Of a DNA stretch of 64,000 bases, positions 3,200-47,130 are shown in pieces. Source of the DNA: an uncultured Saprospiraceae bacterium (GTDB lineage: Bacteria; Bacteroidota; Bacteroidia; Chitinophagales; Saprospiraceae); NCBI GenBank assembly GCA_938001865.1, contig CALLAW010000005.1, forward strand, positions 1-64,000, written 5' to 3'. Below the pieces are notes generated by a model. The model was not told the DNA's origin and did no database searches. It saw nothing but the letters and a program-made list of their open reading frames with translations. A program made the translations under genes and the position numbers. Within the stretch, counting starts at the first letter, position 1. The number at the start of each line of letters is the position of its first letter.

Positions 3200-4687
3200 T
3201 CAAAACTTAAACCCTACCGTCAAGTCTATATTACTTATCTTCTGATCTAAGCTCACCACTTGATTGTCGTCATTCTCCAAGACGACATATGGGAGGTAAC
3301 CTTCTGACTGACGACGCTGCGACCATCCAAGGTCAAAGTATACCGAATCAAATCTAAATCCAAGTCCTAATGAGAGAGCAATATCTCTCTCAGACTGGAT
3401 AGCATAAGGACTCTTAATCATCGCCACTCCTGCTCTTCCTCTCACCTTACGATATGCAACCTCACCACCAAGTCTGATATTAACTCCATTGTCCAGTTCG
3501 TTGAAGATTGCATTGTTGACTTCTTGTTGTCGCTGGATATCATTGAGTGATCCCCCAAATTTTTCAAAATCAAAGAGAGTGGTTGTATAATCTACATACT
3601 CTACATCAAGATTGACAAATCCATTGAGTGTCTCTGACTTGATGATCACACCTGCACTTCCAGTAGCCGTCCATGGTGTAGTCAATCCATATCTAAATAC
3701 TCCATTGGGTGAATCAGCTGTAAATGTCTGTACCTCTTGCGTACTCGGATCAGTAAAGCTATATGTAAGCGAAGTATTGAAGTCATCATTGAGTGTCATC
3801 CATGTAGGGGACTTGATAGCGACTCCTACTCTTACGATCTCTGCTACGAGTGCTTGTACACCACCACTGACATTGAACCCTATCCCGCTAGTAATCAGAT
3901 TCTCTGTATAACTCAGTGAGTTGAAGTCTGGGATGAAGTCTTCCTCCTCGTCTACTTCTCTGTAGACCTTGAGCTCTTCATAATTGACTACAGGGATACC
4001 GATCCCCAGACCTACATTGATATTATCTTTGAGTTTGGCTCCCCATGCAAGGTTGATATCATTCATCCTGCCATACTTGATGACCTCTTGTCCCTTCCTG
4101 ACTACAGTCGTTGGCTTGAAGTCTGTGTCATAGAATCGATCATTGTCAAAGTCAAAGATAGCACCCGTATCAAAAGCGAGTCCCCCTTCGAACTCATCAA
4201 GGGTCTCTGGACTATTATTGTTAGCTACCTCTGCAAATCTCGTGGTGATACTCCCCTTGGTCGTCCCCTCGTAAGTGTATCGCTGTCTATATGTGGATTG
4301 CTTGTTGATCGTGATGGCGATATTACTTGTCTGGAATGCATCACCCCTTGGACTACTATTGAATACTACACCAATTGATGCCAGTCCGAGATTGGAGTTA
4401 AGTGCTGTAGTTTGTGGTGTATCAGTACCATTGATGACAGCATCAGTCTCTATGGAGAACACTGTCGGTGTAAATGTCAGCTCGGATTTACGAAAGTCGC
4501 CGAGTCCCGCTGGATTGATAGGAATCACTCCGATATCTCCACCCATCGCTCCGAATGCTCCAGCCACACCGGATACTCTAGCTGTACTATTCTGATTGAG
4601 AAATGAGTATCTCACTGCCTCCGAGAGGTTCTGTGCAGTGAGTAGACTCGCTGAGATGAGTAATATTGCTGTTATTATTTGTTTCAT
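3200..4687 (-). CDS. OmpP1/FadL/TodX-family outer membrane transport protein
   Basis: 495 residues. A Sec signal peptide at residues 1-18 ends in LLTAQ and is followed by the hatch-like N-terminus typical of the FadL family, with an Asn-Pro-Ala-Gly motif near residue 59. The rest is alternating beta-strand sequence ending in an aromatic residue (VGFKF), as expected for BAM-assembled barrels. FadL-type channels take up long-chain fatty acids or other hydrophobic compounds; the substrate here cannot be read from sequence. In Bacteroidota this family is often mislabelled hemin receptor. It is a single gene convergent with the Smr gene. Family assignment is firm, substrate unknown. Confidence 0.8.
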   Translation of the reverse strand: MKQIITAILLISASLLTAQNLSEAVRYSFLNQNSTARVSGVAGAFGAMGGDIGVIPINPAGLGDFRKSELTFTPTVFSIETDAVINGTDTPQTTALNSNLGLASIGVVFNSSPRGDAFQTSNIAITINKQSTYRQRYTYEGTTKGSITTRFAEVANNNSPETLDEFEGGLAFDTGAIFDFDNDRFYDTDFKPTTVVRKGQEVIKYGRMNDINLAWGAKLKDNINVGLGIGIPVVNYEELKVYREVDEEEDFIPDFNSLSYTENLITSGIGFNVSGGVQALVAEIVRVGVAIKSPTWMTLNDDFNTSLTYSFTDPSTQEVQTFTADSPNGVFRYGLTTPWTATGSAGVIIKSETLNGFVNLDVEYVDYTTTLFDFEKFGGSLNDIQRQQEVNNAIFNELDNGVNIRLGGEVAYRKVRGRAGVAMIKSPYAIQSERDIALSLGLGFRFDSVYFDLGWSQRRQSEGYLPYVVLENDDNQVVSLDQKISNIDLTVGFKF

Positions 4688-4863
4688 ATTGTGATCTATT
4701 TTTTAGTGTAACTCTCTAATCAAAATTAAAAAATCTTGAGACCAAGGTATTAAATCTTCATGTAATCCTGAAACTTGTGTCTAGAGGAGACTCACATCTC
4801 TGCTTCATCTGAGGGATTGGACATTTCTATTCAACACTATGGCTGGATTTTTGGGCATAAAAA

Positions 4864-10809: not shown

Positions 10810-11337
10810 ATGTTGTATTTACTCGCTAAGTCACTTCACATCATAGGATTCACTGCTTGGTTTTCGGGACTCTTCTACTTAGGACGAATCTTTGTCTATC
10901 ACAGAGAGGCCATCGATCGAGGTCAAGTGGATACGGATCACACACTGATGGAGAAGCGAGCCTATGGCATTATCTGTCATCCTGCTATGGTCATCACATG
11001 GATCTGCGGACTTATCATGCTCTACACTAATGGTCTAGACTGGCTCATGGAGAATGGTTGGATGCAAGCTAAGTTGGCACTACTCGGACTACTTACACTC
11101 CACCACCTCTCTCTCGCTAGGACGATTAACAGTCTAGCTAAAGGTGACATCAGGACTTCCTCATTCAGATTCAGATTACTCAATGAGGTCCCTACTCTTT
11201 TTCTCTTTGCGATCATCCCTCTAGCAGTCTTTAAGAATGGAATCAATGCCATCTATGCGATAGGAAGTCTATTACTCTTGATGGTCTTTCTCTATGGAGC
11301 TACAAAGTTTTACAAGCGATATAGAGAGAGTGCCTAA
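10810..11337 (+). CDS. hemJ: protoporphyrinogen IX oxidase HemJ
   Basis: 175 residues. HemJ oxidises protoporphyrinogen IX to protoporphyrin IX in heme synthesis and sits in the inner membrane. The family pattern is clear: an N-terminal helix with the conserved His (SLHIIGFTAWFSGLFYLGRI), MEKRAYGIICHPAMVITWICGL, a helix carrying LTLHHLSLA, and the FRLLNEVPTLFLFAI block. Four membrane helices are visible and the length matches HemJ. No other heme gene is adjacent. The start ATG at 10810 begins directly with the first helix. Confidence 0.9.
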   Translation: MLYLLAKSLHIIGFTAWFSGLFYLGRIFVYHREAIDRGQVDTDHTLMEKRAYGIICHPAMVITWICGLIMLYTNGLDWLMENGWMQAKLALLGLLTLHHLSLARTINSLAKGDIRTSSFRFRLLNEVPTLFLFAIIPLAVFKNGINAIYAIGSLLLLMVFLYGATKFYKRYRESA

Positions 11338-11389
11338 GCAAGGCTTTACAATACCACGACTGTCAGATGATTGCAGCTTCACCGCTGTT

Positions 11390-11450
11390 CAGAAGTTTAC
11401 AACTTCTGACTCATATCAACCCGAATAGCTTGCTCGACTATTGAGCAAGC
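11390..11450. repeat. two consecutive hairpins downstream of hemJ
   Basis: First: CAGAAGTT (11390-11397) and AACTTCTG (11401-11408) with a TAC loop. Second: GCTTGCTC (11428-11435) and GAGCAAGC (11443-11450) with a 7-nt loop. Neither is followed by a T run, so they are not typical terminators, though they may protect or end the hemJ transcript. Confidence 0.5.
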
Positions 11451-11597
11451 ATCATCTCTCTAGTAACAAATAGTATTCTCTGCTATCTCATCTCTATCAT
11501 AAAGTCCACAATGCAACCACTCCAAAGAATAATTGGCAAATACATAGTGCCTTTTTAACTCATATCAAAAAACCATTACTGACAACATAACTCATTG

Positions 11598-11624
11598 GCT
11601 TTTAGGGCTTTTAGGGCTTTTAGG
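11598..11624. repeat. 9-bp tandem repeat, three copies
   Basis: GCTTTTAGG occurs three times head to tail without mismatch, followed by a partial unit (GCAA). It is non-coding and close to the start of the accessory region. Confidence 0.8.
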
Positions 11625-11696
11625 GCAATTTCAAAAAGAATGAACCCCTCAAATTTTAGTATAAAAGTGTCCCTTTCTTGGCAGAAGAATATAGAT

Positions 11697-11704
11697 TAAC
11701 TTTG
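11697..11704 (+). promoter_or_regulatory. putative promoter of the secreted metalloprotease gene
   Basis: TAACTTTG fits the TAnnTTTG -7 consensus. A TTG at 11678-11680 lies 16 bp upstream, slightly closer than the usual -33 spacing. Transcription from here would give a 5' UTR of about 200 nt. Confidence 0.4.
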
Positions 11705-11911
11705 ACAAAAGAGATGTTGCATATCCCCAAAGTGTAAGATCTCAACCGATTTATTTATTTTTTTTAACCCAGAAACCGACCTTACCTAAAAAGAAAGAGC
11801 CCACGAACACATCGAAATGTATCACGCAGACTCAACTCGATCCGCATCGAGACTGCAAATGTATGGCTTTTGTTCTAGGGAGTAGAGACGGTGGATGACA
11901 AATTTTTTTTT

Positions 11912-14900
11912 ATGAAAAAATTTTTATTATTCCTATTTATTTTTCAATCATTAAGTGGCAATACTCAGGACACATATTGTGGTTTTGAAATTAATCCAAC
12001 TGGGAACCCAGGTCTAGATTCATTGTATGAGTCCATGCAGGAGCTTTACAGCCAAGATCTTCAAAGGGTTCCACCTGATGTCCTAATAACCATTCCTGTA
12101 GTATTCCATGTTATGGAATGGGGTAGTACTCCATTACTTACTGATTCAGAAATTGTAGATGCACTTAAGTTACTCAACGACAATTTCTCTGGATTTAATG
12201 ATAATGATGATGATTCTGTGAACACAAATATTGAATTTTGTCTAGCAACACGTGATCCAGAAGGGAATTCTTCTAATGGAATCATAAGATTTGACTGTAA
12301 TAGTGGTTGCGGCTCTTATTCTGAAAATGGGCTTTATTTCAATGTTGGAGGTATTTCATCCTATGTGAATGGACTTTCTGTTTGGCCAATTGATTACTTA
12401 AATATTTGGGTTGTAAATGAAGGAATAGCTTTTGGCTCTGCTACTCCACCAAACATGGCTGATGACACCTGGGATGGAGTTGTAATAACAGCAGATCATA
12501 TAGAGTCTGGTGTGTTAACTCATGAAGTAGGACATTTTTTGGATCTATTGCATACTTTTGAAAGCTATGAAATTCAATGTGATTTATATTCTCAAGGGTT
12601 GAACGTAGCTTGTTGTCAATTAGGTGATAGAGTATGCGATACTGCGCCTCACGAAAGGTCAGTGTTAGATGAAAGCACAGGTTCATTTCCATGTTATCAA
12701 AGTACTATGATAAACTCTTGTTGCACTGGTGAATTTGGAGAGCCTCTTTGTGACTATAGTGGGGATTTCTGTGGTGGAGATTTTTCTGTAGGCACAGATG
12801 CAGATACATACAATAATAATTTCATGAACTACAGCTCATGCATTAGCGAATTCACTCATGGACAGGTTGACAGAATGCGTGATGCAATTATTATGTTTAG
12901 ACCAGAACTTCATAATTCTTTAGGTTGCGAGCTTCCGTGTACTGAAATTGATGATGATATTGTAGGTAATTTCGTACTTAATGCTGGTGATGTCTCTAAT
13001 TATTCAGTATCAGGAGAGTATCAAAGTTATGAATGGTTTTTAGATGGGAATTTTGTAGCAAGTGATGCATCAACTATTATTACGTTCAATGAATCCGGAT
13101 TGTATGATGTTTGTGTGATTTTGAACAACGGAAATTGTTTAAGGTCCTACTGTATTGAAATATATGTTTTGAATAGTCCTGCTGATTGTATTGATCTGTC
13201 TTTTCCGAATTGTAATTTTGTTTTAAATTCAAGTTTTAATCTTAATTCAGGTGTTGAGAACTATACGTCGGTTCCAGACCCAAGTTTATTGTGTAATTGG
13301 ATTAATAGAATAGGTAGTCCAACTATTTGTACACAATCTGGAAGGGTAGGATTATATTGTTTAAATTCTTTCTTTTTAGGACAAGATGTGCAAGGTATTT
13401 CAACAACTCACATGTTAAACTTAGAGGATGGTAAATCATACAGTTTGTCTTTAGATTTTACCACAGCAATATCTGAAATTGCTGGTCAAAATATGAATAT
13501 GGGTGGTTTCGTCATTGGGCTATCTGATTCATTTGTTTCCAATGGTGTGCAAAATGATTTTATCATTCATGATGAAGCGATAGTTCAATCCAACGGAGTG
13601 GAATCAATAAGTATTCCAAATGCTTATGTATGTGATGTTGTCCTTGATCAAAAATTGGAAAATATTGAGTTTGAATACGACTCTGATATGATGGGAAATT
13701 ACTTATTTATCGAAGTTTACTTTGATGATGCTACTCAATCAACTTTAATCATTGATAATGTTACTGTGTCCCCTATAGATCAGCCTACAATAAATCTGCT
13801 AAATATTGATAATCAATGCTACCTTGAAGATGAGGAACATGATATTACTGTTTCAGTAACAGATGGATCAGTGCCATACACGTATGAGTGGATAAATGAT
13901 GCCGAACCAAACATGGTATTAAGTACACAAGAATCATTTGATCTCAATGAGTCTATGCTTACTTCACAACAAGTCATCGACATACAGACAGAATTTATTA
14001 GTCCAAGTTACACTGTGATTGTTAGTGATAAAAACGGATGTACTATCAGTGCAACTACTAACCCTTTTACTCTTAGGTCAATTCCAATTGTTACTATTTC
14101 CACAGTAGATAGTGACTGTAACAATTTAGGGAAGATCTGCTTAGATATTACGGATAATGAAGATCGAACTGCAATAGAGTTTAGTTTTGATGGTGGTATG
14201 ACATATGAACAAAAAATACCTGATAATTCAGGTCAAGTATGTTATGATCTTCCAGATGGAAGTTATGATGTTTGGTCACGGTGGGGAAATGATCAATGTC
14301 CCGTAGATTTGGATGAAATCAATGATGCAACAATTAATAATGATTGTATATTACCTTTAGAGTGCACTGATAATGGGGATGTGATTTCTATTGGCAATGC
14401 CGAAAACGAAGACATTAAAACTTTATCAGATCTAATATTAGAAAATGAGCTAAGTATGCCAATAGTTGGCCAAGAGTTTCACGTAAATGGAAGCATAATC
14501 TTTAATGTAGATGCTCAATTTGAAGATTGTAAGTTCTATTTTAAGGATGGTTCAAGAATAGAAATGCTTCAGAATACTATATCACTTGATTATTGCTTAC
14601 TCACCGCATGCAATGATACTTGGGAGGGTGTTGAGCTTAATGGTACCTCTCTTAATCTTGAAAACTCGACCGTTTCATTTGCATTCATTGGGATTCAAGC
14701 GAATGATGATGTGTATTCTAACATGACAATAGACGAGTGTAATTTTATTCAAAATTACACAGGTATTTCTCTTAATGGCAATCATGAAATTTATTTAGAT
14801 AATTCAGATTTTACTGGTCCTGAATTAGGTACACCAGCAAACGATTGGTTAACCGGTCAATATTACCTTCCTTCAGGTTTAAGATTTAATAATACTAATG

Positions 14901-16972
14901 TTTACCAAAGTACGATTGGAGTCAATGGACCTAATACTTTTGAAAGCAATCTTTTTTATGGTGTTTTTGCAAATAACTCTAGTTTTTGGATAGAAAATAC
15001 AACTTTCAGAAATATTGGAAATAACGATGAATTTGAGGGTGTTCAGATCAATAATAATGTTTTTGCTCCGAGGTCGGCAATTAGAAGTATTGGAAACTCA
15101 TCTTACAATTATATTAGATACTGTAGAATTGAAAACTGTACAAGAGGGTTTTGGATGCAAAATAGAAGCTCCAGCATTTATGGATCACCTAATATAGATG
15201 TTTTTGAGACTGGGATACTAGCATCTAACATTACAGCAAGGAATAATACAATAACTTCAAAGTACAAAGGAATTTCTGCCAATGGTGTCCATTGTACAAT
15301 CTCTGATAACAGTATAGAATTAGAAAACAGTACAGATTTTGAAAATGGAGCAGGAATTCATATATATGCTTCTGAGGGAGGAATAATTAATGATGGAGCT
15401 GAGCATGGCCATTCTACTGTAAGAATAGAAAATAATTCTATTAAAGCATCAAATACTACATGGGCTGGAATTCTATCTCAAAATTCAGAAACAGTTCAGA
15501 TTCTAGAAAACTCTGTTGATATTCAAAATCCAATCAATACAACAGGAATACTTGTGTCTGGTAAAGTTGATTACGAAATTGAATGTAATAACATATTTAG
15601 CGACAATTCTAATGGTTCTTCGGGTGTAAGTAATGGAATTGTAATACAAATGTCTGGAGATCACAGACTATCTAACAATATACTAGATAACCTTACGACT
15701 GGCATAAGGACTAGATTTAATGCTAACGACATCGACATTAACTGCACCCAATTTCAAGGAGGCCACACAGGCCTCAAAGTAGAATCCTTCATCGGCCCAC
15801 AACCAAATGGTGTCAACGCATGGGCGGATGGCGCCTATCAAGTGGATGCCGAGAGTATTTTTGAATTCTTTGAAAACCAACAAATGCAATTTACCGTTGC
15901 AGACCCTGACCCGATGGATGACTGCCCTGATCAAGCTACTCACCTATTCCCATGTGAGATCATAGGGGATGAATGGTTTGAGTATGATCCTGATGGTGAT
16001 GTCGTTTGTCAAGCAAATGGTTGTGAAGGCAATATCGGCTATGATGGTCTCACATCACCAGAAGATGAGCTAGAGTTGCTCTGTGAGTGGAATGAAGGGA
16101 GATCAGATACACTCTCTTGCGAAGAACAATGGGTACAAGACTACCAGCTGTATAGTATGATCAAAGGTCAGGGCCTCGATACATTGGATGATCTAAGAGA
16201 ATATGATTGTCTATCCCAATTTTTAGTAGACATATCAGATAGTCCTATTACTACTTTCTACACCATTGATTCTCTTCTGACTGTACAAGATAGTTTATTA
16301 GTTGATTCACTCATTACAACGAGTACAGCATTGGACAATGTGATGACGAATGACGATAACCGTGATCTTTCACTGGATAGCCTACAATCTCAGATCAGTG
16401 ACTTACTAGCACAGATGGATAGTCTACAGCAGTATAATCTGGTCCATGTAGACAGTCTCCTCACACAAGTTGGTAGAGATAGCTGTGACATTATCACTGA
16501 TTGGGAAGTGGTCTATGATGTACTGATCGATGAGAGGAGTGGAGAGGAGATCACTCAGAGGCAAATTGCTGACTTAGAAACGATAGCACTCAAGTGTCCG
16601 ACTCATGTAGGCCATGTCATTTATTCCGCAAGGAGGATTGTCTCTGATCGGACGCATCTGAGATATGACCTCATTGATGATTGTGGTAGAGTGGAGACTC
16701 GAAGTAGAAAACAAGGTACAATTGTTACTTCTGTAGGACTCTCTATAGTACCGAATCCTTCAACAGATCTAGTCACAATAGGTCTACCAGAAGCAAGTAA
16801 TGGGACATTGACTATCCAATCGTTGAATGGTCAAGTCATGTATGAACATGACACTCATGGGACAGAATCACACAAAGTCATGACTACAACTTATAGAAGT
16901 GGAATCTATATTGTATCTTTTGATTCGATCAATGGAGAACACTATGTTTCGAAGCTGGTCATTGTCAAGTAG
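11912..16972 (+). CDS. large secreted M43-like metalloprotease with beta-helix and T9SS sorting domain
   Basis: 1686 residues from the ATG at 11912, chosen over GTG 11891 because it starts a clean signal peptide ending near SGNTQ. Domains in order: a pappalysin/cytophagalysin-like zinc protease with HEVGHFLDLLH at residues 204-214, a later CDTAPHE segment and an MNYSSC Met-turn near residue 307; immunoglobulin/PKD-like modules; a right-handed parallel beta-helix at about 850-1290; a short coiled coil near 1490-1515; and a C-terminal type A sorting domain starting at PNPSTDLV near 1613. The protein should be exported by Sec, then moved to the surface by T9SS. DNA from 11912 to about 15710 is AT-rich, while the rest matches the genome average. 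The last 380 bp of the conserved tail recur at 21389. Confidence 0.85.
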   Translation: MKKFLLFLFIFQSLSGNTQDTYCGFEINPTGNPGLDSLYESMQELYSQDLQRVPPDVLITIPVVFHVMEWGSTPLLTDSEIVDALKLLNDNFSGFNDNDDDSVNTNIEFCLATRDPEGNSSNGIIRFDCNSGCGSYSENGLYFNVGGISSYVNGLSVWPIDYLNIWVVNEGIAFGSATPPNMADDTWDGVVITADHIESGVLTHEVGHFLDLLHTFESYEIQCDLYSQGLNVACCQLGDRVCDTAPHERSVLDESTGSFPCYQSTMINSCCTGEFGEPLCDYSGDFCGGDFSVGTDADTYNNNFMNYSSCISEFTHGQVDRMRDAIIMFRPELHNSLGCELPCTEIDDDIVGNFVLNAGDVSNYSVSGEYQSYEWFLDGNFVASDASTIITFNESGLYDVCVILNNGNCLRSYCIEIYVLNSPADCIDLSFPNCNFVLNSSFNLNSGVENYTSVPDPSLLCNWINRIGSPTICTQSGRVGLYCLNSFFLGQDVQGISTTHMLNLEDGKSYSLSLDFTTAISEIAGQNMNMGGFVIGLSDSFVSNGVQNDFIIHDEAIVQSNGVESISIPNAYVCDVVLDQKLENIEFEYDSDMMGNYLFIEVYFDDATQSTLIIDNVTVSPIDQPTINLLNIDNQCYLEDEEHDITVSVTDGSVPYTYEWINDAEPNMVLSTQESFDLNESMLTSQQVIDIQTEFISPSYTVIVSDKNGCTISATTNPFTLRSIPIVTISTVDSDCNNLGKICLDITDNEDRTAIEFSFDGGMTYEQKIPDNSGQVCYDLPDGSYDVWSRWGNDQCPVDLDEINDATINNDCILPLECTDNGDVISIGNAENEDIKTLSDLILENELSMPIVGQEFHVNGSIIFNVDAQFEDCKFYFKDGSRIEMLQNTISLDYCLLTACNDTWEGVELNGTSLNLENSTVSFAFIGIQANDDVYSNMTIDECNFIQNYTGISLNGNHEIYLDNSDFTGPELGTPANDWLTGQYYLPSGLRFNNTNVYQSTIGVNGPNTFESNLFYGVFANNSSFWIENTTFRNIGNNDEFEGVQINNNVFAPRSAIRSIGNSSYNYIRYCRIENCTRGFWMQNRSSSIYGSPNIDVFETGILASNITARNNTITSKYKGISANGVHCTISDNSIELENSTDFENGAGIHIYASEGGIINDGAEHGHSTVRIENNSIKASNTTWAGILSQNSETVQILENSVDIQNPINTTGILVSGKVDYEIECNNIFSDNSNGSSGVSNGIVIQMSGDHRLSNNILDNLTTGIRTRFNANDIDINCTQFQGGHTGLKVESFIGPQPNGVNAWADGAYQVDAESIFEFFENQQMQFTVADPDPMDDCPDQATHLFPCEIIGDEWFEYDPDGDVVCQANGCEGNIGYDGLTSPEDELELLCEWNEGRSDTLSCEEQWVQDYQLYSMIKGQGLDTLDDLREYDCLSQFLVDISDSPITTFYTIDSLLTVQDSLLVDSLITTSTALDNVMTNDDNRDLSLDSLQSQISDLLAQMDSLQQYNLVHVDSLLTQVGRDSCDIITDWEVVYDVLIDERSGEEITQRQIADLETIALKCPTHVGHVIYSARRIVSDRTHLRYDLIDDCGRVETRSRKQGTIVTSVGLSIVPNPSTDLVTIGLPEASNGTLTIQSLNGQVMYEHDTHGTESHKVMTTTYRSGIYIVSFDSINGEHYVSKLVIVK
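16399..16777 (+). repeat. tail repeat, copy 1 (inside the metalloprotease gene)
   Basis: This stretch aligns without gaps to 21389-21767 at a constant offset of 4990 bp. I counted 23 mismatches by eye over 377 bp, about 94% identity. It codes for the coiled-coil end, an ERSGEEITQRQIADLETIALKCP segment and the start of the sorting domain. Confidence 0.9.
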
Positions 16973-17016
16973 TAGTCAAGCCAAGATTAGAGTATTGAAT
17001 ACAACAGAATGTAAAT

Positions 17017-17048
17017 GGAGGTTACCATTAGGTAGCCTCCAAATTTTT
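17017..17048 (+). terminator. rho-independent terminator after the metalloprotease gene
   Basis: GGAGGTTACC (17017-17026) pairs with GGTAGCCTCC (17031-17040), one wobble, ATTA loop, followed by AAATTTTT. It ends 20 bp before the next start codon, so the downstream gene is either read through or has a promoter inside this short gap. Confidence 0.75.
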
Positions 17049-17068
17049 AAAATCACAAGATCAAGAAT

Positions 17069-18598
17069 ATGCAGCAATACTATCAGATAAGTTTTGTCGT
17101 GATGATGCTACTCTTAGGATTACAAAATGGATCTGCTCAGGCCAAATATGACTATACGTGGATTTTCGGAGCCAATACGTCAACAATGCCTGGAGTTGAA
17201 GGGAGTGTTATCCAATTTTCTGATGCTGGTGTTGATACATTGTATCAGCCTTTGCCTAGTAAAATTGGTACAGAAAACATCTCTATCAGCACTGTTGATG
17301 GTGACTTGATCGCCTACTCCAATGCTTGCGATGTGTACAATAGTGACTTTGAGCTGATGGAGAATGGAGAAGATATCAACCCAGGAGAAGTCCACAATCA
17401 ACAATGTGAGAATGGTAATTATGCAGGAGCTCAGAACTCATTGATGTTACCCGACCCTGCTGGGGGAGGGGTGTATTTTTTCCATAAATTAATTGAGAAC
17501 TTTTTTTTTGGTCCTGACTTTGTAGGAGGCGCCACAAATGTCCTTTATTCATATATAGATGTTACACTTAATCAGGTAACTGAAAAGAATGTCTCTATTC
17601 AAAGTAATTTGCTGAATACATCAGGTTTTACAGAGGCGATCAGACATGCTAATGGGCAAGATTGGTGGATCCTTGAGTTTTCACAATGGGATAGTCTCGA
17701 AGTGACACAAGATGATTCTCTGATGTATGTTTTCAAGATAAATATAGATTCTATTTATTTGAATCATAAACAGGTTATTGAGCATACTTCAGTATTAGAT
17801 TACAGATGTTCTGTTGGAGGTCAATCAGCATTCTCTACAGATGGTGGTACCTTTGCAATGTACTGCCCTTTAAGCGGTTTAGATCTCTATGACTTTGATA
17901 GAGAGACAGCGATGCTGAGTAACTATCGTCACTTAGAGATACCATCGACTTATCGTACCAGCGGACTCTGCTTCTCACCGAATAATCGCTTCGTCTATGT
18001 GAGTAATGGAGACAAGCTCTGGCAGGTAGACCTTGAGGCCGAGACTCTTGCGAGTGGCTTACTATTGATAGAGGATGAGATACTCAGTACAGGAGGCTTC
18101 TCAGCTAACTTTGCTAAGATGCAACTCGGTCCCGACTGCCGTATCTACATGAATAGCACCAACCAGCGACCGACACTCCACCTCATCACCCACCCAGATG
18201 AGAAGGGAGAAGCTTGTGGCTTTATCCAACAAGGATTCAAACTTCCACACCACCATCAACCCGCATCTCTCCCAAACTTCCCCCACTTCCGCATCGATGA
18301 GGACGAGGTTTGTAATCCTGACTTGGTGACATCTGTCTTTGAGTTTCCTGTAGAAGTAGTCAAAGGCCTCGACGTTCATCCCAATCCCACATCAGGAGAT
18401 TTGACAATTGATCTTCCAGAGGTGATCACAGGTCTACTATCTATGAGGGATGTGACTGGTCAGGTGGTGATGACATTAGACTTGGACTATGCTGAGGAGG
18501 TTGAGCTTGACTTGTATGGGTATCATGCAGGGATGTATGTGGTGGAGGTGGTGGGTGAGAGTGGAGAGCGGTATGTAGAGAGGGTAGTTGTGTTTTAA
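17069..18598 (+). CDS. T9SS-sorted secreted protein, paralog A
   Basis: 509 residues: signal peptide ending NGSAQA, then a mature N-terminus with DYTWIFG. The N-terminal half contains YSNACDVYNSDFELMENGEDINPG, LMLPDP, a DWWIL segment, and propeller-like strands such as YDFDRETAMLSNY. The type A sorting domain begins at HPNPTSGD near residue 432 and ends in ERVVVF. The architecture matches a family expanded in Saprospiraceae; function unknown. It is closely related along its length to the protein at 19519-21054. The first ~800 bp are AT-rich and from about 17880 the codon use switches to the genome's normal style, a switch that in paralog B comes only near 20700. It lies between two copies of the metalloprotease tail. 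Confidence 0.85.
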   Translation: MQQYYQISFVVMMLLLGLQNGSAQAKYDYTWIFGANTSTMPGVEGSVIQFSDAGVDTLYQPLPSKIGTENISISTVDGDLIAYSNACDVYNSDFELMENGEDINPGEVHNQQCENGNYAGAQNSLMLPDPAGGGVYFFHKLIENFFFGPDFVGGATNVLYSYIDVTLNQVTEKNVSIQSNLLNTSGFTEAIRHANGQDWWILEFSQWDSLEVTQDDSLMYVFKINIDSIYLNHKQVIEHTSVLDYRCSVGGQSAFSTDGGTFAMYCPLSGLDLYDFDRETAMLSNYRHLEIPSTYRTSGLCFSPNNRFVYVSNGDKLWQVDLEAETLASGLLLIEDEILSTGGFSANFAKMQLGPDCRIYMNSTNQRPTLHLITHPDEKGEACGFIQQGFKLPHHHQPASLPNFPHFRIDEDEVCNPDLVTSVFEFPVEVVKGLDVHPNPTSGDLTIDLPEVITGLLSMRDVTGQVVMTLDLDYAEEVELDLYGYHAGMYVVEVVGESGERYVERVVVF

Positions 18599-19034
18599 TG
18601 TATAATGGTTAAGGCTAAATGGATAATGTGGCCGATTAAGACTAATCTAAGTTTAAGACTAAGATTAATTTCTTACTGATAATGTGTATTGGTTAATGTA
18701 CAATGCTTAATGAGGTTTTTGAAGATTAAAATTAAGACCAAGTTTAATGTGATAGTGTAATTGGTAATCTCTTCATAAAAACCTGCATTTGTTCAATTAA
18801 AGTCAGTGATGACCTACAGAAATATGTAGTGCCTCGAGTGGAATTACGTACCGATTTTCAATCGGAAAAAAGCATGGAACGGTAAGAGGCAGCTACGGTT
18901 TTGACTTCTGAGAAGAAGGCGAAAATTTCCTTTGGTCATCTTGATTTTTTGTTTTCTTTCGACAGGCTCAAGACCGGCAGTTTTTTATCAAGAAAAAATG
19001 AAAAAGTCATCATGGTAAGTAAAATGAGCAGTAG
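18599..19034. other. non-coding relic region between paralog A and the second tail
   Basis: The first 180 bp are simple AT-rich sequence with recurring TTAA/TAATG words. From about 18780 the composition becomes mixed: a small hairpin CCGATT-TTC-AATCGG at 18851-18865 and the motif TTTCGACAGGCTCAAG near 18957-18972. That motif resembles a short repeat I have seen between genes in many bacterial genomes. No reading frame is convincing. Confidence 0.45.
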
Positions 19035-19466
19035 TGTTATTGTCTGATTCATAAGGCAGCTGACCAACCCCATGATTTTGCTCTCAAGTGTCCAATGGAA
19101 GTAGGACCTGTTATCTATAGAGCCCGAAGAATAGTCTCAGAGAGAGATGGTCTAAGATATGACTTGATAGGCGACTGTCATCGAGTTGATAATAGAAGCA
19201 TAGATAACACTATAAGTGCAAGTAATACACCTTTGATATTATCACCTAATCCAACCTCTAGAGAAGTATACGTTACTTCAAGTGAAGAGATGACAGGGTT
19301 AATCTCTATATCTACAATGGATGGTATTGATGTTATGAATGTTGACATAAATAAGTCTACACAAATAAAATTGATTACAAATAATCTAAAAAGTGGAATT
19401 TATATGGTATCTTATAGAGGTAAAACGGGTAATATCCAAACAGCAAAACTAATGATAGTAAAATAA
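19035..19466 (+). pseudogene. 5'-truncated copy of the metalloprotease tail with T9SS sorting domain
   Basis: The frame is open from 19035 with no plausible start or signal peptide. From about 19056 it matches the metalloprotease tail at protein level (ADxxxxxALKCPMEVGPVIYRARRIVS against the tail's ADLETIALKCPTHVGHVIYSARRIVS). It then carries a complete type A sorting domain (LSPNPTSREVYV to KLMIVK) and a stop at 19464-19466, followed by its own terminator. An ATG at 19095 would give a 123-residue protein without signal peptide, which could not be exported. I read it as the 3' end of a lost gene, or a silent tail cassette. Confidence 0.75.
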
Positions 19467-19473
19467 ATTAAAC

Positions 19474-19506
19474 GCAGCAGTCTAATATCGGGCTGCTGCA
19501 GTTTTT
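19474..19506 (+). terminator. rho-independent terminator after the truncated tail
   Basis: GCAGCAG (19474-19480) pairs with CTGCTGC (19493-19499), 12-nt loop, followed by GTTTTT. It sits 13 bp before the start of paralog B, mirroring the terminator placement before paralog A. Confidence 0.7.
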
Positions 19507-19518
19507 AAATTTTGATAA

Positions 19519-21054
19519 ATGAGCCATATCTATATTGCAAGATTTACAATTGTCTTTTTGTTGTGTTACACTTCGTATCTGCTATCCTCTCAACCTAAGC
19601 ACGACTATATATGGGTCTTTGCGGGAGATGTTGATACGATGCAAAATGCTGAGGGCAGTATTATAGATTTCAATGGAGGTGAAAGATCAACTCGTTACCA
19701 AGATATGCCAGAAAAAATTGGAATCAATAATATTTCATATTCCAGCGAAGATGGTGAATTGATTGCATATTCCAATGCATGCGATGTGTTTAACTCTGAC
19801 TTTCAGATAATGGAGAATGGGGAAGATATTAATCCGGGCACAGGGCATGATGCGAATTGTCCAATTGGATTTTACGGAGGTCAACAAAACTCTCTGATGC
19901 TGCCTGATCCAGGTGGGCAAGGAATTTACTACTATCACAAGCGACTAGAAATATATTTTGATGTTGAGTGGATAGGAACCGTCTTTGATATATTGTACTC
20001 GTACATTGATATAGCATCCAATTCTGTAAAAGAAAAAAATGTTTCGCTTCATAAATCAATACGCCATATTAGCGGATTTACTGAAGCCATTCAGCACTCG
20101 AATGGTAAGGATTGGTGGATTTTAGATTTTTCAGAATGGGACAGTCTAGCACATACTGTAGATGATACGATGATGTATGTGTTCAAGTTAGATAGTGACT
20201 CACTATACTTTCATCACGAGCAGAAGGTTAGCAATGCTGCAATCCTTGATACTTGGTGCAGTTCAGCAGGTCAGTCTGCTTTTTCAACTGATGGCAGCAC
20301 CTTGGCGATGTATTGCCCTCTTAGTGGTCTTGATTTGTATGATTTTGATCGAGAAACAGCTATGATTAGTAATTACAGACATTTAGATATACCTTCTACT
20401 ATTCGTAGTAGCGGAGTTTGCTTTTCGCCAAGTAATAGGTTCATTTATGTCTCAAATGGGGACAAATTCTGGCAAATAGACCTTGAAGAACCCACCTTAG
20501 AATCTGGTCTCTTATTGATTGATGAGTATGATCCTAATCTTGGAGAAGGTTTTACAGCCAATTTTAATCAGATGCAACTAGGTCCAGACTGCCGTATCTA
20601 TATGAATAGTACTAATCAAACGCGTACCCTACACATCATTAACAGTCCTGATGAAAAGGGTGAGGCTTGTGACTTTGTGCAACGAGGATTTGAGTTGCCA
20701 TACGTCTGTCAACCTGGCTCTCTGCCCAACTTCCCCCACTTTCGTATCGATGAAGAGGAGGTCTGTGATCCTGACTTGGTGACATCTGTCTTCGGGTTTC
20801 CAGTAGAAGTAGTCAAGAGACTCGATGTCCACCCCAATCCTACATCAGGCGAATTGACCATAGACTTGCCAGAGGTGATGAGTGGGAGACTGTCGGTCCG
20901 AGATGTCACAGGTCAGGTGGTGATGACACTGGACTTAAACTATGCTGAGGAGGTATCTCTAGACTTGTATGGGTATTATGCAGGGATGTACGTCATAGAA
21001 GTTGTGAGTGAGAGTGGTGAGCGGTATGTGGAGAGGGTGGTGTTGATAGATTAG
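19519..21054 (+). CDS. T9SS-sorted secreted protein, paralog B
   Basis: 511 residues, the same architecture as the protein at 17069-18598: signal peptide ending LLSSQ, DYIWVF at the mature start, the NACDVFNSDFQIMENGEDINPG block, DWWILDFSEWDSL, the propeller-like middle, and a type A sorting domain from HPNPTSGE near residue 436 ending ERVVLID. Long blocks are identical in protein to paralog A, yet codons between about 20300 and 20700 are AT-rich where paralog A uses GC-richer synonyms. From about 20700 the two genes become highly similar in DNA as well. This pattern points to recombination or gene conversion of the 3' end. Function unknown. Confidence 0.85.
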   Translation: MSHIYIARFTIVFLLCYTSYLLSSQPKHDYIWVFAGDVDTMQNAEGSIIDFNGGERSTRYQDMPEKIGINNISYSSEDGELIAYSNACDVFNSDFQIMENGEDINPGTGHDANCPIGFYGGQQNSLMLPDPGGQGIYYYHKRLEIYFDVEWIGTVFDILYSYIDIASNSVKEKNVSLHKSIRHISGFTEAIQHSNGKDWWILDFSEWDSLAHTVDDTMMYVFKLDSDSLYFHHEQKVSNAAILDTWCSSAGQSAFSTDGSTLAMYCPLSGLDLYDFDRETAMISNYRHLDIPSTIRSSGVCFSPSNRFIYVSNGDKFWQIDLEEPTLESGLLLIDEYDPNLGEGFTANFNQMQLGPDCRIYMNSTNQTRTLHIINSPDEKGEACDFVQRGFELPYVCQPGSLPNFPHFRIDEEEVCDPDLVTSVFGFPVEVVKRLDVHPNPTSGELTIDLPEVMSGRLSVRDVTGQVVMTLDLNYAEEVSLDLYGYYAGMYVIEVVSESGERYVERVVLID

Positions 21055-21100
21055 CATACCCATCCCTTTCTGCCGATTAATAAATCGACATTCATACCCT

Positions 21101-21136
21101 TCCCTAGATTTAGGGAAGGGCTAGGGTTGGGTAGAA
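21101..21136. repeat. 36-bp direct repeat, copy 1, with palindromic core
   Basis: Identical to 21311-21346. With the four preceding bases it forms a perfect 10-bp hairpin (CCCTTCCCTA at 21097-21106, TAGGGAAGGG at 21111-21120, GATT loop), followed by CTAGGGTTGGGTAGAA. It resembles a family of short intergenic repeats seen in many genomes. Confidence 0.75.
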
Positions 21137-21260
21137 TATGGAAGCATAAGTTAAACCTCAGATTATCAGTTCTGTAGAAGGTAAATGCGAGGATTAATCT
21201 TTATGCCGATGTTGTCAGAACTGCTAGCCCGTCCAAAGTGTTCACCTTGGTTCCTTCCTT

Positions 21261-21284
21261 ATCAAAGCATTGGGATGCTTTGAT
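21261..21284. repeat. perfect 10-bp hairpin
   Basis: ATCAAAGCAT (21261-21270) and ATGCTTTGAT (21275-21284) with a TGGG loop, between the two 36-bp repeats. No T run follows on either strand, so it is not a standard terminator. Confidence 0.7.
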
Positions 21285-21310
21285 TCTGATATTGTCAGAT
21301 CAGTCAGTCA

Positions 21311-21346
21311 TCCCTAGATTTAGGGAAGGGCTAGGGTTGGGTAGAA
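21311..21346. repeat. 36-bp direct repeat, copy 2
   Basis: Exact copy of 21101-21136, 210 bp downstream. The left arm of the hairpin is shortened here because the four bases before it differ. Confidence 0.75.
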
Positions 21347-21377
21347 GGTGAAGGTTTAAGTCTAATATTAAGTATTA

Positions 21378-21797
21378 ACTGATAATGTTGACCTACTAGC
21401 TCAGATGGATAGTATACAGCAGTACAATCTGATCCATGCAGACAGTCTCCTCACACAAGTTGGTAGAGATAGCTGTGACATTATCACTGATTGGGAGGTG
21501 GTCTATGATGTACTGATCGATGAGAGGAGTGGAGAGGAGATCACTCAGAGGCAAATTGCTGACCTAGAGACGATAGCACTCAAGTGTCCAACGCATGTAG
21601 GTCATGTCATCTATTCCGCAAGGAGGATTGTCTCTGATCGGACGCATCTGAGATATGACCTCATTGATGATTGTGGTAGAGTGGAGTCTCGGAGTAGAAA
21701 ACAAACTACAACTGTTACTTCTACAGAACTCTTTATAGTACCGAATCCTGCAACAGATCTAGTCACAGCTTACACTTACACTCCTACCTTTCACTAA
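21378..21797 (+). pseudogene. truncated copy of the metalloprotease tail, sorting domain lost
   Basis: Homology to the metalloprotease tail begins abruptly at about 21388. It runs gap-free at about 94% DNA identity to 21767, then ends just inside the sorting domain (PNPATDLV) with an unrelated short end and a stop at 21795-21797. In-frame stops lie upstream, no start fits and the sorting domain is incomplete. The remaining ATG at 21405 would give 130 residues without signal peptide. High identity indicates a recent duplication or gene conversion with the copy at 16399. Confidence 0.85.
21389..21767 (+). repeat. tail repeat, copy 2
   Basis: Direct-repeat partner of 16399-16777. Differences are mainly single transitions, many in third codon positions, which suggests the sequence was under coding constraint for part of the time since duplication. 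Confidence 0.9.
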
Positions 21798-21845
21798 GGG
21801 AACAAACGAATTTCGATTCCAATCGAAAGGAAGGATGGATGCAAT

Positions 21846-21886
21846 AAAAAAAAGAGAAGAGAGACAACTCATTGCCTCTCTCCTCT
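21846..21886 (-). terminator. rho-independent terminator of dnaA
   Basis: On the minus strand a 15-bp stem with a few wobbles (right arm 21853-21867, left arm 21872-21886, CTCA-region loop) is followed by eight T. It lies 78 bp downstream of the dnaA stop. Confidence 0.75.
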
Positions 21887-21963
21887 ACCCATATATCTAT
21901 TCTCAAATATCTAAATAAATATCTCTTATTTGCCAATACAATATTGGCTACATCTCTCTCTAG

Positions 21964-23361
21964 TTAGAATCCCGAGCCAATACTCATCTGGACCTTTCTT
22001 TCTATTTCTGTGACTTGATTTTTGAATACTTCATCTGTATCCATCATATCCTGCACCGCCTTGAGTGAGTAGATGACAGTACTATGATCCTTCCCTCCGA
22101 AGTCATCTCCAATACTCTTGAGAGACTTATTGGTAAAGTTCTTAGCGAAGTACATTGAGAGTTGTCTCGCGATGACTACTTCTCTCTTACGTGTACTTGA
22201 TTGGATTTTCTCGACAGAGACTTTGTAGTGCTCTGCTACGAGTTTTTTGATCTTTTCTAGAGCCACTTCCTTATCAGCAGAGACGACATATCTTCTGATG
22301 ATATCTTTAGCGAGATCTACATCTATCTTTTTGAGGTTGAGTGTAGACTGAGCTATCAGAGAGATCATGACACCCTCTAGCTCTCTGATATTATTGACTA
22401 CATTATGACAGACATACTCGAGTACATTCAGTGGTATCTTCTCGATATCATCCTCTAGCTTATCTTGCACGATTGCCATCCTAGTCTCGAATGTTGGCGG
22501 TTGGATATCAGCTGATAGTCCCCACTTGAATCGACTGATGAGTCTATCTTCCATATTGGCAAGATCCTTAGGGGCTCTATCTGAGGTCAAGATGATCTGC
22601 TTACCACTTTGGTGCAATCGATTAAAGAGGTTGAAGAGGATCTCCTGAGTCTTAGCCCTCCCTGCAAGGAACTGGACATCATCCAAGATCAAAGTGTCGA
22701 TATGTTGGTAGTATGCGAGGAGGTCATCTATAGTCCCCTTCTTGATTGCATTGATGATCTGATTAGTAAATCGATCCGTCGTGATATACATCACATTATT
22801 CTTGGGATGTTGCTTCTTGATCTGATTGCCGATCGAGTGTGCTAAGTGAGTCTTACCGATACCCACACCACCATAGACGAAGAGTGGGTTAAATGCTGTC
22901 TTCCCAGGATTGTCAGAGATCGCCTTACCTGCAGACCTTGCAAGTCTATTGCAGTCCCCTTCTATGAGCTTGTCAAATGTATACTTTGGATTCAGACCAG
23001 AGTCAATTTTTACTTTTCTGATCCCAGGGATGATGAACGGATTCTTGATCTGCTCCGAGTCGATTGCTGTTTGCTTCTTCTCGGTAGAGTTAGAGAATTG
23101 ATTTTTCTTATCTAAGAGGATGATATACTCTAATCTTGCCTTACTTCCGAGCTCTGTGACGATACACTTCCTGAGGAGTGAAAGATAGTGCTCTTCGAGC
23201 CATTCGTAGAAGTATTTGTTGGGTACTTGGATGGTGAGTATCTCGTCTTCTAACTTGACGGGGATGATCGGCTCAAACCATGTTTTGTACTTTCGTTCGT
23301 TGATATTGTCTTTTATGATAGCGAGACATCGGTCCCAGACTGCTACGTGTTTGTTGGTCAT
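21964..23361 (-). CDS. dnaA: chromosomal replication initiator DnaA
   Basis: 465 residues, normal length. Domain I is at residues 1-85, with a short linker to about 125. The AAA+ domain has Walker A GGVGIGKT at 164-171 and Walker B LILDDVQFL. The C-terminal DNA-binding domain carries the signature GGKDHSTVIYSLKAV. It binds DnaA boxes at oriC and loads the helicase. The ATG at 23361 starts the usual N-terminus. The 277 bp upstream are very AT-rich, but I found no TTATNCACA-type boxes on either strand, so oriC is not shown here. Monocistronic with its own terminator; the accessory cassette region lies just downstream. Confidence 0.98.
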   Translation of the reverse strand: MTNKHVAVWDRCLAIIKDNINERKYKTWFEPIIPVKLEDEILTIQVPNKYFYEWLEEHYLSLLRKCIVTELGSKARLEYIILLDKKNQFSNSTEKKQTAIDSEQIKNPFIIPGIRKVKIDSGLNPKYTFDKLIEGDCNRLARSAGKAISDNPGKTAFNPLFVYGGVGIGKTHLAHSIGNQIKKQHPKNNVMYITTDRFTNQIINAIKKGTIDDLLAYYQHIDTLILDDVQFLAGRAKTQEILFNLFNRLHQSGKQIILTSDRAPKDLANMEDRLISRFKWGLSADIQPPTFETRMAIVQDKLEDDIEKIPLNVLEYVCHNVVNNIRELEGVMISLIAQSTLNLKKIDVDLAKDIIRRYVVSADKEVALEKIKKLVAEHYKVSVEKIQSSTRKREVVIARQLSMYFAKNFTNKSLKSIGDDFGGKDHSTVIYSLKAVQDMMDTDEVFKNQVTEIERKVQMSIGSGF

Positions 23362-45819: not shown

Positions 45820-45976
45820 GATATCGATCCGAACCTCAGAATGACGGCACAGAGCTACTCCAATGATTATGAACATAAAGACTCAAGCAATCTTCAATGA
45901 TCCGAATGACTCAATCACAGAGATAACAACGAATGTAATCGCATTTTCAGTCAATATCTGTAGAGACAGCAGCTAA
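45820..45976 (+). pseudogene. decayed 3' end of a paralog of the 46105-47130 gene
   Basis: Read in the frame that gives ATPMIMNIKTQA and later FSVNIC before the TAA at 45974-45976, this 157-bp stretch matches the gene downstream (ASATIMNIKTQA, LPINIC) in DNA and protein. A 2-bp deletion breaks the frame near its start, with an in-frame TGA just before. Only the last ~50 codons remain. It shows the locus once held two copies side by side. Confidence 0.8.
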
Positions 45977-46104: not shown

Positions 46105-47130
46105 ATGAAGAAAATACTCAAATATCTAGGCATAGCATTAGTCTTCTATCTCATGCTATGCCTCAGTACCCCCTTCAATAGCACACTCAGGAAGAGATCA
46201 ATTCAAAATCAAATCAACTATCTATCCAACCTAATTGATCGTGGGTATGATGATCAACTTCAACGGAGATTTCCAGAGGGCAAACTCTTCAGTAATGCCC
46301 TCCTTGCTCTATCGACAATAGAGTATTGTAATAAGACCAACAAGATCGATCCTCAATACTCAAAGATCGTGGACAACTGCATAGCAAGAATCCAATCCAA
46401 AAAAAGTGTAGAGATCTTTGATCAAAACCTGAATCCAGAGTATGGGATGTTCTATCTGGGGTGGTCTAACCTAGTGTACTCCACATACTTGCAAAGCGAC
46501 CTAATTGCATACTCTGAAATCCCTGATGAAGTCTTCACAACATCTCAGGAGATTACACACTTACTCAGCCAAATACAGTCGGATAGCCTACAGATCCTCA
46601 ATACGTATGCGGAATCAAATTGGCCAGCAGATAATCTAGTAGGAATATTGTCTATCAAGGACAATCGACTGCAGAGACAATGGACTGATCTCATACTCCA
46701 GACCTCAGAACATAATAGTGGACTCATCCATCATGTCGGAGGGCAACCCCAGCATATCAGAGGCTCTTCTACTGCTTTGATTACATATTGTCTAAGCAAA
46801 ATGGGATACAAGGAGATAAGGTCTTATAATGAGAGTTTCCACGATCAGTTAATCGATAAGTATCTCGGGATCGAACTCGTCAAAGAGTACCATAATGGAC
46901 TAAATAATATGGATGTTGACTCTGGACCTATCATCGCAGGCTACGGAGCTTCTGCAACGATAATGAATATAAAGACTCAAGCAAGCCTTGATAATCCAAA
47001 TGCCAAAATCACTTGGGCAGCCATGAATGCAATCTCATTGCCGATCAATATCTGTGGAAGCAAGTATCTCATCCTCAAACAAGAACCAATGCTTGATCTA
47101 TTCATGCTGTGGGCAAGCACAGAATTGTGA
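46105..47130 (+). CDS. hypothetical protein, helical (alpha-toroid-like), N-terminal membrane helix
   Basis: 341 residues, no function recognised. An N-terminal hydrophobic helix (residues 5-22) could be a signal anchor. The rest is predominantly helical with conserved-looking blocks: WPADNLVGILSI near residue 172, IHHVGGQPQHIRGSSTAL near 210, and MDVDSGPIIAGYGASATI near 270. The last resembles glycine-rich ends of alpha/alpha-barrel proteins, but I cannot name an enzyme class. A decayed 3' copy lies upstream at 45820-45976, evidence that this is a real, duplicated gene. Confidence 0.7.
   Translation: MKKILKYLGIALVFYLMLCLSTPFNSTLRKRSIQNQINYLSNLIDRGYDDQLQRRFPEGKLFSNALLALSTIEYCNKTNKIDPQYSKIVDNCIARIQSKKSVEIFDQNLNPEYGMFYLGWSNLVYSTYLQSDLIAYSEIPDEVFTTSQEITHLLSQIQSDSLQILNTYAESNWPADNLVGILSIKDNRLQRQWTDLILQTSEHNSGLIHHVGGQPQHIRGSSTALITYCLSKMGYKEIRSYNESFHDQLIDKYLGIELVKEYHNGLNNMDVDSGPIIAGYGASATIMNIKTQASLDNPNAKITWAAMNAISLPINICGSKYLILKQEPMLDLFMLWASTEL

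What the first reader, a model, noticed from the sequence alone, without database searches (positions are those of the whole stretch)
16399..21797. Alternating array of repeated 3' tails and paralogous secreted proteins next to dnaA
The order is metalloprotease with tail - paralog A - truncated tail - paralog B - truncated tail. The first and last tails share about 94% DNA identity over 377 gap-free bp (counted by eye), while the middle one is an older relative seen mainly at protein level. Both paralogs start shortly after a tail terminator. This looks like an expanded unit (tail + T9SS protein) that could supply sequence for recombination and vary surface proteins. The layout is directly visible; the variation function is inference.
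Basis: partly seen in the sequence, partly recalled or inferred. Interest (0 to 1): 0.8.

Follow-up and report, generated by a model that had tools for sequence, protein, structure and literature searches.

The report
Reshuffling array of secreted propeller genes
Beside dnaA, this bacterium carries a patchwork of secreted surface-protein genes and broken gene ends, some of which appear to have been recombined and recently exchanged with a related species; whether one culture actively switches them is untested.

Summary
The layout is real: a 379-bp gap-free repeat (93.9%) ends the metalloprotease gene (16399-16777) and recurs truncated at 21389-21767, with paralog A, an older tail relic and paralog B between. 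A and B are type IX (T9SS) secreted proteins; B is modelled as a beta-propeller. Three of three congeners lack the array here; in this genome it sits at one breakpoint of an apparent inversion. A contig (C84) binned with congener G003 carries tail2-B at 97-98% DNA identity (synonymous divergence 0.05, against about 0.8 for seven core genes). Its ends overlap by exactly 141 bp, so the unit is tandem or circular, and its B switches within 11 bp to the sorting-domain end of a gene with an unrelated head (36/37 diagnostic sites before, 16/16 after). A second paralog, on better-placed contigs, is a between-species mosaic. These are 2 of 65 between-genome paralog pairs; the others look old. So recombination and occasional recent exchange are supported; orphan tails look like eroding relics rather than donors; switching in culture is untested. 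Closest known: Porphyromonas gingivalis T9SS domain rearrangement. Layout, not biochemistry, resembles orphan CDI modules. Caveat: fragmented assemblies, and C84 may be mis-binned.

The parts
11915..16972 (+). M43 metalloprotease with a long middle region, pre-CTD tail domain and T9SS sorting domain (reading frame from 11915; the ORF listing start 11891)
   Evidence: Pfam Peptidase_M43 1.1e-12, Por_Secre_tail 5.2e-9
16399..16777 (+). tail 1: part repeated as tail 3
   Evidence: 93.9% over 379 bp
17016..17041 (+). terminator-like hairpin between tail 1 and A
   Evidence: such sites not above shuffles
17069..18598 (+). paralog A, 509 aa, T9SS secreted
18500..18840 (+). end of A's sorting domain plus spacer, recurring at 89% on G003:C67 and G003:C84
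19074..19466 (+). tail 2: relic without 5' part, sorting domain intact; 96.8% DNA to G003:C84 from 19086 on
19474..19499 (+). terminator-like hairpin between tail 2 and B
   Evidence: such sites not above shuffles
19519..21054 (+). paralog B, 511 aa, T9SS secreted, predicted beta-propeller body
20957..20967 (+). 11-bp interval where G003:C84's B switches from B-like to C67-like sequence
21057..21136 (+). 80-bp palindrome-bearing element after B; partial second copy at 21311-21346
   Evidence: five near-full copies in G000 and G003, none found in G001 or G002; four of the five lie beside a paralog
21389..21767 (+). tail 3: fragment cut at both ends, most of the sorting domain missing
21964..23361 (-). 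dnaA (name from the finding and by inspection), right-hand neighbour; faces obgE in three congeners

Best explanation
A lineage-specific, recombining cluster of T9SS-secreted surface proteins. Shown: tail-bearing T9SS genes (or relics) alternate with propeller paralogs; the cluster is absent here in three congeners and lies at an inversion breakpoint; one unit and half of another paralog are shared between two species' assemblies at far lower synonymous divergence than core genes; one unit has overlapping contig ends (tandem or circular); breakpoints map to the late sorting domain, a start codon and mid-propeller. Inferred: homologous recombination in the conserved sorting domain and spacer, including unequal crossing-over, duplicates and deletes units and joins different secreted heads to shared 3' ends; DNA from related species supplies some heads; large upstream genes are lost by deletion and leave orphan tails while the propeller genes stay open. 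The likely use is turnover of surface binding proteins (ligands unknown) over evolutionary, perhaps population, time.
For: Family dispersed, and 17 of 38 places at contig ends against at most 3.9 expected. Array absent in 3 of 3 congeners, reciprocal junctions. B/C84: 98.2% DNA, pS 0.048, against pS 0.77-0.83 in 7 core genes. C84 ends overlap by exactly 141 bp. Crossover within 11 bp: 36/37 and 16/16 sites, too short for a graph artefact given overlaps of 77-141 bp. C83/C29 mosaic: pS about 0.04, then 0.67, then 0.19; 0 of 500 shuffles; flanking GC3 fits two species.
Against: Only 2 of 65 between-genome paralog pairs have pS below 0.6, so recent exchange is not general. C84, C67 and C88 are small contigs of a draft bin, and C116 in that bin has G000-like GC3, so C84 may be mis-binned. 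A and C67 sorting domains differ with pS 0.66, so that sharing is old or partial. No reads; inversion and array not shown to be causally linked. No near copy in other family genomes examined.
Confidence: 0.66

Rival explanations
1. Ordinary old birth-and-death of a T9SS paralog family, inherited vertically; tails are pseudogene debris and nothing was exchanged recently.
For: A and B are old duplicates (body pS about 0.8); 63 of 65 between-genome pairs have pS 0.65 or more; relics, an orphan signal peptide and an internally deleted copy show decay.
Against: B/C84 and C83/C29 synonymous divergence far below core genes; sharp mosaics.
Confidence: 0.13
2. Assembly or binning artefact: C84 belongs to a strain of the window's species, and contig chimeras mimic recombination.
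For: Small contigs; C116 in the same bin has G000-like GC3; no coverage data.
Against: C29 is 145 kb with G003-like GC3 and C83 has G000-like GC3, yet they share half a gene. The C84 switch has only 11 bp of shared sequence. C84 ties by 140 exact bp to C67, whose 700-aa head is absent from G000. Even if mis-binned, C84 would be a second arrangement of the same locus.
Confidence: 0.13
3. Programmed variation: the orphan tails are silent donors that recombine with the expressed gene and switch surface proteins within a culture.
For: 379-bp direct repeats at 94% flank A-tail2-B; rearranged relatives exist.
Against: Tail 3 lacks most of the sorting domain, so loading it on the protease would remove its export signal; no crossover was mapped between tails; no site-specific recombinase was looked for or noticed; no reads.
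Confidence: 0.06
4. Orphan toxin/immunity modules of CDI or Rhs kind.
For: Same syntax: large secreted gene, small gene, orphan 3' end, small gene, orphan 3' end; compare passages of PMC3150448.
Against: The following gene itself carries a T9SS sorting domain and a predicted N-terminal helix fitting a signal peptide; the tail ends in a sorting domain; variation is in heads.
Confidence: 0.02

Closest known systems
Domain rearrangement and allelic exchange of Porphyromonas gingivalis T9SS surface proteins (kgp, rgpA, hagA; PMC5266723: abstract and one results section read)
   Same: Bacteroidota T9SS cargo with a shared C-terminal domain; modular recombination incongruent with strain phylogeny; repeats that defeat assembly
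   Different: There: adhesin domains inside proteases, between strains of one species. Here: propeller genes, shared sorting-domain ends, orphan tails between genes, and exchange across species with saturated core genes
Orphan cdiA-CT/cdiI modules (PMC3150448: passages read)
   Same: Array of orphan 3' ends, each followed by a small gene, downstream of one full-length secreted gene
   Different: There the 3' end is the variable toxin and the next gene its immunity; here the 3' end is a sorting domain and the next gene is itself a secreted protein
Seven-bladed lactonase/YVTN-like beta-propellers (3fgb, 1l0q and others)
   Same: Body of B aligns at Z 21.9 over 301 residues, rmsd 3.5; predicted fold only
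   Different: About 10% identity; no Pfam family for the body; function and ligand unknown

Membership tests
T9SS type A cargo | C-terminal sorting domain (PF18962/TIGR04183) above cut-off | tested here: met
   Protease, A, tail 2, B met; tail 3 not
T9SS type A cargo | N-terminal signal peptide | tested here: inconclusive
   No signal-peptide program; B has a predicted N-terminal helix 2-21 and hydrophobic starts by inspection
T9SS type A cargo | T9SS machinery in the genome | not tested
   No search made
Beta-propeller proteins | Propeller fold of the body | tested here: met
   Predicted model, pLDDT 86.2, Z 21.9; no experimental structure
CDI/Rhs orphan modules | Variable 3' toxin region followed by a non-exported immunity gene | tested here: not met
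   Tail ends in a sorting domain; next gene carries a sorting domain
CDI/Rhs orphan modules | Orphan fragments recombine onto the full-length gene | not testable with these tools
   No reads or strains
P. gingivalis-like domain shuffling of T9SS proteins | Mosaic genes incongruent with core divergence | tested here: met
   2 of 65 between-genome pairs
Phase-variable (invertible or switching) loci | Alternative junctions within one culture | not testable with these tools
   No reads available

The most novel reading that the evidence does not exclude
The tail-propeller unit is a semi-autonomous exchange module: it is amplified or excised (tandem or circular 2.9-kb form) by recombination at a shared sorting-domain/spacer 'address', moves between species, and lands behind secreted genes with a matching 3' end, so that different secreted heads share common sorting ends: a cassette system for surface proteins of Saprospiraceae.
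Probability: 0.18. Interest if true: 0.75.

Novelty: new variant of a known kind. Interest (0 to 1): 0.5.

Why it matters
If right, environmental Bacteroidota rebuild secreted surface proteins by recombining at the T9SS sorting domain and sometimes by trading units between species whose core genes are saturated with synonymous change. That would give a testable route by which uncultured Saprospiraceae vary their surfaces, and would explain why these genes so often sit at contig ends of draft genomes.

Tried and rejected
Toxin/immunity array: rejected because the downstream genes carry sorting domains and the variable part is the head.

Single vertical history: rejected for B and the C83 paralog by synonymous divergence, but it fits most other pairs (63 of 65 between-genome pairs at pS 0.65 or more).

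Sharp swap of a whole sorting domain between A and the C67 gene: I considered it and dropped it. Identity rises gradually (34/60, 39/60, 45/60, 47/57 in blocks) and pS of the sorting domain is 0.66.

Assembler chimera for the B/C67 switch: rejected because only 11 bp are shared at the switch, whereas contig ends overlap by 77-141 bp.

Transfer judged by base composition alone: inconclusive. Array genes have low GC3 for G000 (0.23-0.42 against core 0.48), but the C55, C83 and C69 relatives of the same genome do too.

Tail domain structure: model too poor (mean pLDDT 55.2). Wider spread: array DNA against 398 family genomes hit 6, the 4 of the genus and 2 others with short matches. NCBIfam: sorting-domain matches, matches confined to the C-terminal part of longer models, and one weak metalloproteinase match below cut-off. 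Paper searches on T9SS CTD recombination/paralogs/Saprospiraceae, gene conversion (53), Saprospiraceae T9SS MAGs (60), unequal crossing (68), contig ends/hypervariable surface proteins (79) and domain shuffling (80): no listed title or abstract opening describes this arrangement; apart from PMC5266723 and PMC3150448 none was opened.

Own errors corrected: the C83/C29 row was out of frame (replaced); the crossover map inside one search was out of register (replaced); the 'mini' translation was out of frame and its query row is not used.

Full report
WHAT IS THERE. The window is G000:C5:1-64000 of a 3.58-Mb assembly in 108 contigs. Of 17 named loci encoding relatives of paralog A, 8 record titles say Saprospiraceae and 4 more name Aureispira, Saprospira or Phaeodactylibacter, so the host is probably in or near that family (inference). 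Gene names dnaA, obgE and hemJ-like are by inspection or from the finding, not from a family search. Tail 1 and tail 3 match over 379 gap-free bp at 93.9% and are the only two such DNA copies in the genome; their pS is 0.125 and pN 0.041 over 126 codons. Tail 2 keeps a complete sorting domain but lacks its 5' part; tail 3 is cut at both ends and does not score as a sorting domain.

WHAT THE PROTEINS ARE. The protease, A, tail 2 and B carry the T9SS type A sorting domain. The bodies of A and B match no Pfam family. A model of B from 28 aligned relatives (mean pLDDT 86.2) aligns to lactonase and YVTN propellers at Z up to 21.9 over 301 residues. The tail-domain model is too poor to use.

A DISPERSED FAMILY. 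Paralog A has 26 matches in its own genome at E up to 0.01, many of them sorting domain only. Among 15 paralog starts of the four genomes with readable upstream DNA, 7 directly follow a T9SS tail gene or relic (A, B, C55, C83, G003:C84, G003:C29 p2, G002:C9), 3 follow another paralog or its fragment (C69 p1 and p2, C29 p1), and 5 follow neither (G001:C22, G002:C43, G003:C87, C58, C59); read, with the two orphan sorting domains on C29 and C9 confirmed (the C9 one only just above cut-off). Left out of that count: G002:C41 (contig edge), copies that are fragments or lone heads, and divergent copies on C44, C36 and C4. Of 38 family places (the 40 less two that are only sorting domains of long ORFs), 17 lie within 25 bp of a contig end; a generous expectation is 3.9, Poisson P about 1e-6 (one contig length was unknown and counted as no). 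These genes break assemblies, through near-identical copies or strain variation.

NOT CONSERVED, AND AT A BREAKPOINT. In the three available congeners dnaA faces obgE directly, and the window's hemJ-like gene (10810-11334) directly faces another gene. In G000, hemJ faces dnaA across the array, and obgE faces that other gene across a 236-aa ORF on contig C59. The two junctions are reciprocal and fit one inversion. Whether the array caused it is not shown.

EXCHANGE BETWEEN SPECIES. Core DNA of G000 and G003 is 66-75% identical in the compared stretches, and seven core genes have pS 0.77-0.83. Against this, contig C84 of the G003 bin (CALISO010000084.1) matches B at 98.2% over 1,325 bp and tail 2 plus the start of B at 96.8% over 783 columns, with pS 0.048 and 0.049. 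Independently, the C83 paralog of G000 and a paralog near the start of G003's 145-kb contig C29 have pS about 0.04 in codons 1-250, about 0.67 in 251-400 and 0.19 in 401-450. Four flanking genes on C29 have GC3 0.31-0.33; of nine on C83 and C91, eight have 0.45-0.54 and one 0.36; core means are 0.34 for G003 and 0.48 for G000. These two are the only pairs with pS below 0.6 among 91 pairs, 65 of them between genomes: recent exchange is clear but not general.

REARRANGED HEADS AND 3' ENDS. (1) C84's two ends overlap by exactly 141 bp, so its 2,874-bp unit (spacer, a longer tail 2, B) is tandem or circular. (2) C84's B is B-like at 36 of 37 diagnostic sites up to position 20956 and C67-like at 16 of 16 from 20968 on; A matches only 6 of those 16. 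It then runs into an A-type spacer. (3) G003:C67 has a syntax like the window's: a beta-helix protein with weak metalloprotease matches below cut-off, then a 700-aa T9SS protein. The end of that protein's sorting domain and its spacer match A's at 89%; further upstream the similarity falls away gradually. Its head has no significant similarity to A's and no counterpart in G000 outside the sorting domain. C67's last 140 bp lie exactly inside C84, so it probably leads into tail 2-B there. (4) C83 and C29 share their head from the start codon on, but not the sequence before it. (5) C69 p1 has a body 72% like C69 p2 but a sorting domain closest (40%) to that of C83's small tail gene. Of 91 pairs, 6 showed a breakpoint at 2 or fewer of 500 shuffles, and A/B at 5 of 500; in several the sorting domains are more alike than the bodies.

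HOW IT MOST LIKELY WORKS (inference). Homologous recombination in the conserved 3' ends duplicates, deletes and reconnects genes, and DNA from related species sometimes enters the same way. Large upstream genes are lost by deletion and leave orphan tails; C84 still keeps a longer tail 2 than the window. Other decay: a lone signal-peptide start on C91 and an internally deleted paralog on C69. A and B remain open, so selection appears to act on the propeller genes. A prediction: recombination between tails 1 and 3 would delete A-tail2-B and give the protease a truncated sorting domain.

LIMITS. All genomes are fragmented; C84, C67 and C88 are small contigs and could be mis-binned (C116 of that bin has GC3 0.42-0.44, nearer G000). 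No reads were available, so switching in one culture is untested. T9SS machinery genes and recombinases were not searched. An 80-bp palindromic element follows B; of five near-full copies in G000 and G003 four lie beside a paralog, and none was found in G001 or G002; its role is unknown.

KNOWN OR NEW. The closest described case is domain rearrangement and allelic exchange of P. gingivalis T9SS proteins (PMC5266723, abstract and one results section). The layout resembles orphan CDI modules (PMC3150448, passages), but the defining toxin-immunity features are not met. I rate it a new variant of a known kind.

Noticed in passing
window 10810-21964 with G000:C59 (L129 5861-8981): Apparent chromosomal inversion next to dnaA relative to three congeners; the second junction holds a 236-aa ORF (L129 7035-7742) for which no match was seen in the four other loci compared with it.
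   Followed up: partly
window 21057-21136 and 21311-21346; L057 282-359; L171 1501-1577: 80-bp element with the palindrome TTCCCTAAATTTAGGGAA; most near-full copies lie beside paralogs, one (C22) does not.
   Followed up: partly
window 18940-19002: 63 bp of the A-tail2 spacer recur twice at 87% in G082, another genus of the family; possibly a widespread intergenic repeat.
   Followed up: no
L051 (G000:C55) 1311-2259 and 4460-4760: Tandem repeat of about 244 bp (about 95% alike) and a 120-bp direct repeat at 97.5%, upstream of the C55 T9SS pair.
   Followed up: no
L144 and L148 (G003 C67 and C88): Two contigs begin with the same 141 bp and carry 87.8% alike T9SS gene pairs: two copies or two strain variants.
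   Followed up: partly
L143 (G003 C116): Genes with GC3 0.42-0.44, nearer G000 than G003: possibly a mis-binned contig.
   Followed up: no
L058 and L059 (G000 C4 and C44): A 1,074-bp stretch at 94% identity shared by two contig ends, including a divergent propeller paralog; the C44 copy has an in-frame TGA.
   Followed up: no
window 45849-45964 and 46943-47058: 116-bp repeat at 74% identity, apart from the array.
   Followed up: no
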